The notes under the pieces were generated by a model that saw nothing but the letters and a program-made list of their open reading frames with translations, searched no databases and had not been told where the DNA came from. Below are positions 73 through 735 of a stretch of DNA of 64,000 nucleotides, piece by piece. A program made the position numbers and the translations under genes. The number at the start of each line of letters is the position of its first letter. Position 1 is the first letter of the stretch. Source of the DNA: an uncultured Pseudomonadales bacterium. GTDB lineage: Bacteria > Pseudomonadota > Gammaproteobacteria > Pseudomonadales > Pseudohongiellaceae. The stretch is taken from assembly GCA_938091935.1 (NCBI GenBank), contig CALKNV010000001.1:1-64000 (forward strand), read 5' to 3'.

Positions 73-735
73 ATGGGCAAAAAGGCATTGATCACCTGCG
101 TAGAGCGCTACATGGGCGCAGCCATCAAGGACAAATTTGAGTCCGAGGGCATCGAGGTCGTGACTGGTAGTTACCCCATGCACTCACAATCTGATTGTGA
201 AGAGTTGGTGAACTCCGCCGGTGATATCGACATCCTGGTGGCGAACCTGGCAGAGCCGCCCATGACCGGGCCAGTGCAGAGAATCGAAAATGCGGACTGG
301 AACAAGCTGTTCGATTCGCTGGTGCATCCTCTTATGTACCTGGTGCGTGCAGTGACACCGCAAATGTTGGAGAGAAAAGCCGGCAAGATTATCGCCGTCA
401 CCAGTGCGGCGCCATTGAAAGGTATCGCCAACAACGCGGCTTATTGCGCGGCACGTGGCGCCCAGAATGGTTTTATCAAAGCAGTAGGGCTAGAGCTGGC
501 ACGCAGTAATGTACACGTGAACGCTATCGCGCAGAACTACATCAACAACAATACCTATTACCCTGATGACATTCTGGACGACGAGAAATTTCTCGATCAC
601 GTGAAACGCAACGTGCCCACTAACAAGGTCGGCGCCGCTTCAGAAACCGCAGAGCTCGCGGCCTATCTTGCCAGCGATCGCTGCAATCACATGGTGGGGC
701 AGATTATTCCGCTGGCGGGGGGCTGGGTAACCTAG
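73..735 (+). CDS. Halohydrin dehalogenase-like SDR-family protein
   Basis: 220 aa; AGGAGG ribosome-binding site just upstream. Lacks the SDR TGxxxGxG motif and has T8-X4-Y13-X-G15 instead. Catalytic motif is S111-X12-Y124-X3-R128 (Arg in place of the SDR Lys). C-terminal half (NYINNNTYYPDD...LAAYLASDRCNHMVGQIIPLAGGW) resembles HheC as recalled. Confidence 0.8.
   Translation: MGKKALITCVERYMGAAIKDKFESEGIEVVTGSYPMHSQSDCEELVNSAGDIDILVANLAEPPMTGPVQRIENADWNKLFDSLVHPLMYLVRAVTPQMLERKAGKIIAVTSAAPLKGIANNAAYCAARGAQNGFIKAVGLELARSNVHVNAIAQNYINNNTYYPDDILDDEKFLDHVKRNVPTNKVGAASETAELAAYLASDRCNHMVGQIIPLAGGWVT

What the first reader, a model, noticed from the sequence alone, without database searches (positions are those of the whole stretch)
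73..735. SDR-fold protein carrying the complete halohydrin dehalogenase motif pair
Seen: T8-X4-Y13-X-G15 replaces the SDR cofactor motif, and the catalytic triad spacing is S111-X12-Y124-X3-R128 with Arg instead of Lys. Established: these are the two diagnostic halohydrin dehalogenase motifs (T-X4-F/Y-X-G and S-X12-Y-X3-R), and HheC uses Ser132/Tyr145/Arg149 with the same spacing. The C-terminal half also resembles HheC (NYINNNTYYP vs NYLHSEDSPYFYP; LAAYLASDRCNHMVGQIIPLAGGW vs LVAFLASGSCDYLTGQVFWLAGGF, recalled sequence). Inference: it is likely to dehalogenate vicinal halohydrins or open epoxides with azide, cyanide or nitrite. Automated annotation would probably call it a generic SDR oxidoreductase.
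Basis: partly seen in the sequence, partly recalled or inferred. Interest (0 to 1): 0.82.

Follow-up and report, generated by a model that had tools for sequence, protein, structure and literature searches.

The report
Widespread marine halohydrin-dehalogenase-like enzyme
A marine bacterium carries a well-preserved gene for an enzyme that databases label a generic dehydrogenase, but whose sequence and predicted shape match halohydrin dehalogenases, enzymes that turn halogenated alcohols into epoxides and back; it belongs to a large, little-studied branch of that known family.

Summary
ORF 73-735 (+) encodes 220 aa with T8-X4-Y13-X-G15 and S111-X12-Y124-X3-R128, the two published halohydrin dehalogenase (HHDH) motifs. 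All six motif residues are invariant in 47 diverse relatives, and no other SDR checked in the same genome has the pair. The nearest solved structures by sequence and by AlphaFold2/Foldseek are HheD8, HheD2 and HheB (37-44% identity, TM about 0.95), far ahead of any NAD(P)-dependent SDR. A tree puts it on the HHDH side (100/99), with B+D types. The glycine-rich motif and strand beta-3 of the cofactor site are missing; dN/dS is 0.04-0.05. It is not an isolated novelty: at least 486 loci in GTDB genomes encode relatives, and motif mining is published. It is too distant for type B or D; E/F references were unavailable, so the subtype is open. The neighbouring methylsuccinyl-CoA-type cluster is conserved, but the HHDH is an accessory insertion there: ten related genomes lack it, one keeps a remnant, one has it without the cluster. 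The natural substrate remains unknown.

The parts
73..735 (+). Halohydrin dehalogenase-like SDR-fold protein, 220 aa
   Evidence: ORF; PDB phmmer; profile; tree; AF2 + Foldseek
62..69 (+). AGGAGGAG ribosome-binding site 3 bases before the ATG
   Evidence: sequence read directly
94..117 (+). Motif 1 T8-X4-Y13-X-G15 (nucleophile pocket, replaces TGxxxGxG)
   Evidence: invariant in 47 relatives
403..456 (+). Motif 2 S111-X12-Y124-X3-R128 (catalytic triad, Arg for Lys)
   Evidence: invariant in 47 relatives
535..564 (+). Loop N155-Y-I-N-N-N-T-Y-Y-P164 aligned with the HheC halide-site loop N176-Y-L...Y-F-Y-P
   Evidence: N155, Y156, N159, Y162, P164 invariant; HheC sequence; role of the loop in HheC from established knowledge
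765..1982 (-). Context: CoA-transferase family III, closest to 2-methylfumaryl-CoA isomerase (Mct)
   Evidence: 8apq 548 bits; TIGR04253 577 bits, below its cut-off of 725
2000..2857 (-). Context: MaoC / hydratase-2 type enoyl-CoA hydratase
   Evidence: Pfam; PDB
3002..4756 (-). Context: acyl-CoA dehydrogenase, homologue of (2S)-methylsuccinyl-CoA dehydrogenase (8ciw, 568 bits over residues 58-579)
4723..5931 (-). Context: thiolase (PRK06157)
   Evidence: 683 bits against cut-off 403
5958..7403 (-). Context: archaeal-type HMG-CoA synthase-like protein with C-terminal OB fold
7420..8643 (-). Context: second acyl-CoA dehydrogenase

Best explanation
The gene encodes a cofactor-independent halohydrin dehalogenase of the B/D-related branch. 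Ser111 holds the substrate hydroxyl, Tyr124 (its pKa lowered by Arg128) takes the proton, and the alkoxide displaces the neighbouring halide to form an epoxide; the leaving anion sits in the pocket that in dehydrogenases holds nicotinamide, here built by T8/Y13/G15 and the N155-P164 loop. In reverse it opens epoxides with halide, azide, cyanide or nitrite. Shown here: motifs, predicted fold, ancestry, lost cofactor motif, purifying selection. Inferred from characterised relatives: the chemistry. Unknown: the natural substrate; the gene looks like an accessory catabolic or detoxifying function of marine gammaproteobacteria, not an obligate step of the neighbouring CoA pathway.
For: Both diagnostic motifs, invariant across the clade. 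Best PDB sequence matches: HheD8 (8xxb) 189 bits, HheD2 (7b73) 171, HheB 152, against 93 for the best dehydrogenase; with a family profile 247, 244, 219 against 115. AF2 model pLDDT 92.3; Foldseek top nine chains are all HheD8, HheD2 or HheB, TM 0.94-0.96. Tree: HHDH references plus the family on one side, 100/99; family with B+D, 98/98. Own-genome SDR control negative. dN/dS 0.04-0.05. The review PMC4989007 reports that HHDH activity was confirmed for the 19 enzymes chosen with the same two motifs.
Against: No activity data for any member of this clade were found. Identity to any HHDH with a solved structure is 37-44% at best. The same review warns that HHDHs may have other physiological functions. 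No epoxide hydrolase or halogenase was recognised among the neighbours examined, though the genome was not searched for them.
Confidence: 0.82

Rival explanations
1. HHDH fold and acid-base chemistry, but a different native reaction: for instance reversible epoxide opening with a nucleophile other than halide, or an addition/elimination on a hydroxy- or CoA-linked metabolite. Dehalogenation would then be a promiscuous activity seen only in the test tube. (This is compatible with the best explanation at the level of in-vitro activity.)
For: PMC4989007 notes only two HHDH genes are in an operon with an epoxide hydrolase and that other functions cannot be excluded. The gene sits beside a methylsuccinyl-CoA/mesaconyl-CoA type gene cluster in 39 of 80 loci, and the clade spans several phyla.
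Against: The cluster is present in 58 of 61 genus genomes but the HHDH in only 40; ten genomes keep the facing neighbours without it and one has a remnant; G055 has the HHDH without the cluster. More distant members have unrelated neighbours. So the particular CoA pathway is not its obligate partner; other native reactions stay open.
Confidence: 0.4
2. An ordinary NAD(P)-dependent SDR, such as the L-2-keto-3-deoxyfuconate dehydrogenase named by one database.
For: Pfam and NCBIfam see only generic SDR families; source names say SDR oxidoreductase or 2-keto-3-deoxy-L-fuconate dehydrogenase.
Against: No TGxxxGxG, Arg instead of Lys, no beta-3 strand in the model; the L-KDF dehydrogenases score 80 bits against 189 for HheD8 (named); tree 100/99.
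Confidence: 0.04
3. A catalytically dead, cofactor-less partner subunit, as BbsC is (by established knowledge) in the SDR heterotetramer BbsCD.
For: A pathway-like acyl-CoA cluster with a CoA transferase, acyl-CoA dehydrogenases, thiolase and, in some loci, a canonical SDR (305 aa) lies next door; BbsCD is a distant fold match (rank 42).
Against: Ser, Tyr and Arg are invariant, which a structural subunit would not need; the SDR partner is absent from the window's cluster and from many loci; HheD/HheB are far closer.
Confidence: 0.04

Closest known systems
HheD-type HHDHs (HheD8, PDB 8xxb; HheD2, PDB 7b73)
   Same: Both motifs, length near 220-230 aa, same fold (TM 0.95-0.96), IAQN[FY] and GGW sequences
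   Different: Only 44% and 38% identity, below the 57-95% reported for D-type additions against verified D enzymes (PMC4989007); separate clade
HheB (Corynebacterium sp. N-1074, PDB 4zd6/5b12)
   Same: Motifs, length, fold, TM 0.94-0.95
   Different: 40% identity; IAQHW instead of IAQNY in the pocket loop
HheC (Agrobacterium radiobacter AD1, PDB 1pwx)
   Same: Motifs, triad spacing, N-Y-[LI]...Y-[FY]-P pocket loop
   Different: 26% identity in the structure alignment, 84 bits; Phe12 instead of Tyr; longer N-terminal half and a C-terminal extension with Trp249 that is absent here
HheE and HheF types
   Same: Published additional HHDH subtypes found with the same motifs (PMC4989007)
   Different: Sequences could not be obtained here, so identity to the window protein is unknown

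Membership tests
Halohydrin dehalogenase family | Motif 1 T-X4-F/Y-X-G | tested here: met
   T8-X4-Y13-X-G15, invariant in 47 relatives
Halohydrin dehalogenase family | Motif 2 S-X12-Y-X3-R | tested here: met
   S111/Y124/R128, invariant
Halohydrin dehalogenase family | SDR-like fold without the dinucleotide cofactor site | tested here: met
   AF2 pLDDT 92.3, beta-3 absent; nearest solved folds HheD8 with chloride, HheD2, HheB
Halohydrin dehalogenase family | Anion (halide) pocket in place of nicotinamide | tested here: inconclusive
   Pocket residues conserved by alignment, but no coordinates or ligand were examined
Halohydrin dehalogenase family | Groups with characterised HHDHs and not with NAD(P)-dependent SDRs | tested here: met
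   Tree 100/99; long branches and missing A, E, F, G references limit detail
Halohydrin dehalogenase family | Halide release from vicinal halohydrins / epoxide opening by anions | not testable with these tools
   needs expression and assay
HHDH subtype D | Identity within the range reported for D members (57-95%) | tested here: not met
   44% to HheD8, 38% to HheD2
HHDH subtype B | Groups with HheB | tested here: not met
   40% identity; HheB pairs with HheD instead, 99/95
HHDH subtype E or F | Groups with HheE or HheF | not tested
Canonical NAD(P)-dependent SDR | TGxxxGxG and Y-X3-K | tested here: not met

The most novel reading that the evidence does not exclude
The clade is an undescribed HHDH subtype (outside A-G), common in ocean gammaproteobacteria and scattered over several phyla, whose native job is not xenobiotic dehalogenation but turnover of a natural epoxide or halohydrin of the sea, gained and lost as an accessory module beside a branched dicarboxylyl-CoA pathway.
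Probability: 0.3. Interest if true: 0.55.

Novelty: new member of a known kind. Interest (0 to 1): 0.36.

Why it matters
HHDHs are valued biocatalysts with few characterised lineages and no settled natural role. A large, coherent clade that databases call dehydrogenases offers many new enzymes, and a genus in which about two thirds of genomes carry the gene and a third do not, at one fixed genomic junction, is a natural comparison for finding what the enzyme does in nature.

Tried and rejected
A second genomic copy on contig C31: rejected, it looks like the same locus at a contig break (the order TPR gene, DsbA-like, HHDH, CoA transferase is contiguous in L010). A functional tie to the neighbouring CoA operon: conserved gene order looked promising, but phylogenetic profiles and empty junctions show the HHDH is dispensable there. 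A dehydrogenase reading from database names: rejected. Assigning subtype E from memory of source organisms: not done, because the defining papers (PMC4249193; 10.1007/s00253-016-7493-9) are not held and a search for HheE/HheF found no HHDH paper naming them. The first tree had mistranslated outgroup rows and was discarded, rebuilt. PutA next to some homologues (L013) is not conserved.

Full report
What is there. The window opens at the left edge of contig C1 of a 58%-complete genome in 69 contigs. ORF 73-735 on the + strand starts with ATG behind AGGAGGAG and encodes 220 aa. PMC4989007 and PMC11976700 confirm that these are the published HHDH fingerprints, and that ordinary SDRs carry T-G/A-X3-G/A-X-G and Y-X3-K instead.

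Is it more than chance. In 47 relatives spanning 49-94% identity the six motif residues are invariant, as are N155, Y156, N159, Y162 and P164 of the loop that aligns with the HheC halide site. 76 of 78 members (window plus GTDB loci) carry both motifs. Of the 14 PF13561 hits in the same genome only the two alleles of this gene do. Between the window and its relatives dN/dS is 0.04-0.05, so the protein is under strong purifying selection.

Family. By sequence the best solved structures are 8xxb (189 bits), 7b73 (171) and HheB (152), while the best dehydrogenase has 93. With a profile of the clade the gap widens to 247/244/219 against 115. Foldseek's descriptions name 8xxb as HheD8 (a triple mutant, with chloride) and 7b73 as HheD2; the AF2 model (pLDDT 92.3) fits them at TM 0.95-0.96, and the top nine chains are all HheD8, HheD2 or HheB. 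The strand order of the model lacks beta-3, part of the dinucleotide-binding half of a classical SDR (inference from the order of elements). An IQ-TREE tree separates HHDHs plus this clade from canonical SDRs at 100/99 and joins the clade with B+D at 98/98; the A/C branch and the SDRs are long branches, so deeper order is unsure. Identity is 44% to HheD8, 38% to HheD2, 40% to HheB, below the 57-95% that PMC4989007 gives for newly added D-type enzymes. Types E and F could not be compared.

Distribution. The 5.8-billion-protein search found 4837 hits, a set that may include generic SDRs; the best 120 are at about 79-94% identity. In the window's GTDB genus 39 of 60 other genomes carry an ortholog (66-91%), against 2 of 38 genomes from other families of the order (57-59%), with a clear gap down to generic SDRs at or below 33%.

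Neighbourhood. C31 ends in an 817-base overlap with the window's start, near-identical at both ends and 77-88% in much of the middle, so C31 gives the upstream side: a DsbA-like gene on the same strand, then the HHDH. Facing it on the - strand are homologues of 2-methylfumaryl-CoA isomerase (548 bits to 8apq, but below the NCBIfam cut-off), a MaoC hydratase, (2S)-methylsuccinyl-CoA dehydrogenase (568 bits to 8ciw), a thiolase, an HMG-CoA-synthase/OB-fold protein and a second acyl-CoA dehydrogenase. This points to a branched C5-dicarboxylyl-CoA route (inference). 39 of the 80 GTDB loci share the facing CoA-transferase homologue.

Does the neighbourhood tell the function. Probably not directly. 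The isomerase homologue is in 58 of 61 genus genomes and the methylsuccinyl-CoA dehydrogenase homologue in 59, the HHDH in 40 (many genomes are incomplete, so single absences are weak). In ten genomes the DsbA-like gene and the isomerase homologue still face each other on one contig with nothing, or only an acyl-CoA ligase, between; in G056 a remnant matching residues 150-215 with an in-frame stop lies exactly there. G055 has the HHDH but neither partner. More distant members sit beside unrelated genes (TonB receptors, a mechanosensitive channel, TRAP transporter genes, a photolyase). The HHDH is therefore an accessory gene at a stable junction.

Mechanism. Shown: motifs, predicted fold, ancestry, lost cofactor motif. 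Inferred: Ser/Tyr/Arg acid-base catalysis of halohydrin to epoxide and its reversal, as described for HHDHs in PMC4989007. The natural Tyr in motif 1 is noteworthy because HheC F12Y raises activity up to five-fold and the melting temperature by 10 K (PMC11976700). Unknown: the natural substrate.

Verdict. A genuine, correctly recognised HHDH-family member of a large unannotated clade; a new member of a known kind, with subtype and physiology open. Interest is moderate because the family, the motifs and motif-based mining are established, and HHDHs from marine gammaproteobacteria such as HheD2 are already known (PMC5892878, for its gammaproteobacterial origin).

Noticed in passing
L008:18349 (G000 contig C31, about 68348), the gene just upstream of the HHDH: DsbA-like protein with in-frame TGA at the first Cys of CPWC; all 51 matches found in the loci held have TGA there (a few are overlapping copies of one locus), a similar hairpin follows the TGA in most of 13 loci folded, and SelB (C44:7141-9042) and tRNA-Sec (C17:9155-9246) are in the genome, so it is very likely a UPWC selenoprotein that standard gene calling truncates. 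UXXC DsbA-like selenoproteins are known from the Sargasso Sea (PMC1088965).
   Followed up: partly
window:1-817 against the end of G000 contig C31 (L008:19000-19816): The two contig ends overlap with 95-100% identity at the flanks but 77-88% in much of the HHDH gene, mostly synonymous: two diverged alleles of the gene in one population, or recombination, which probably broke the assembly.
   Followed up: partly
L112 (G056:C124:9258-9470): HHDH remnant matching residues 150-215 with an in-frame stop, between the isomerase homologue and the DsbA-like gene: gene loss in progress or an assembly gap.
   Followed up: yes
window:765-8643: Cluster combining homologues of methylsuccinyl-CoA dehydrogenase, 2-methylfumaryl-CoA isomerase, MaoC hydratase, thiolase and HMG-CoA synthase/OB fold; its isomerase and dehydrogenase homologues are near-universal in this genus. 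The full pathway and its starting substrate are not obvious.
   Followed up: partly
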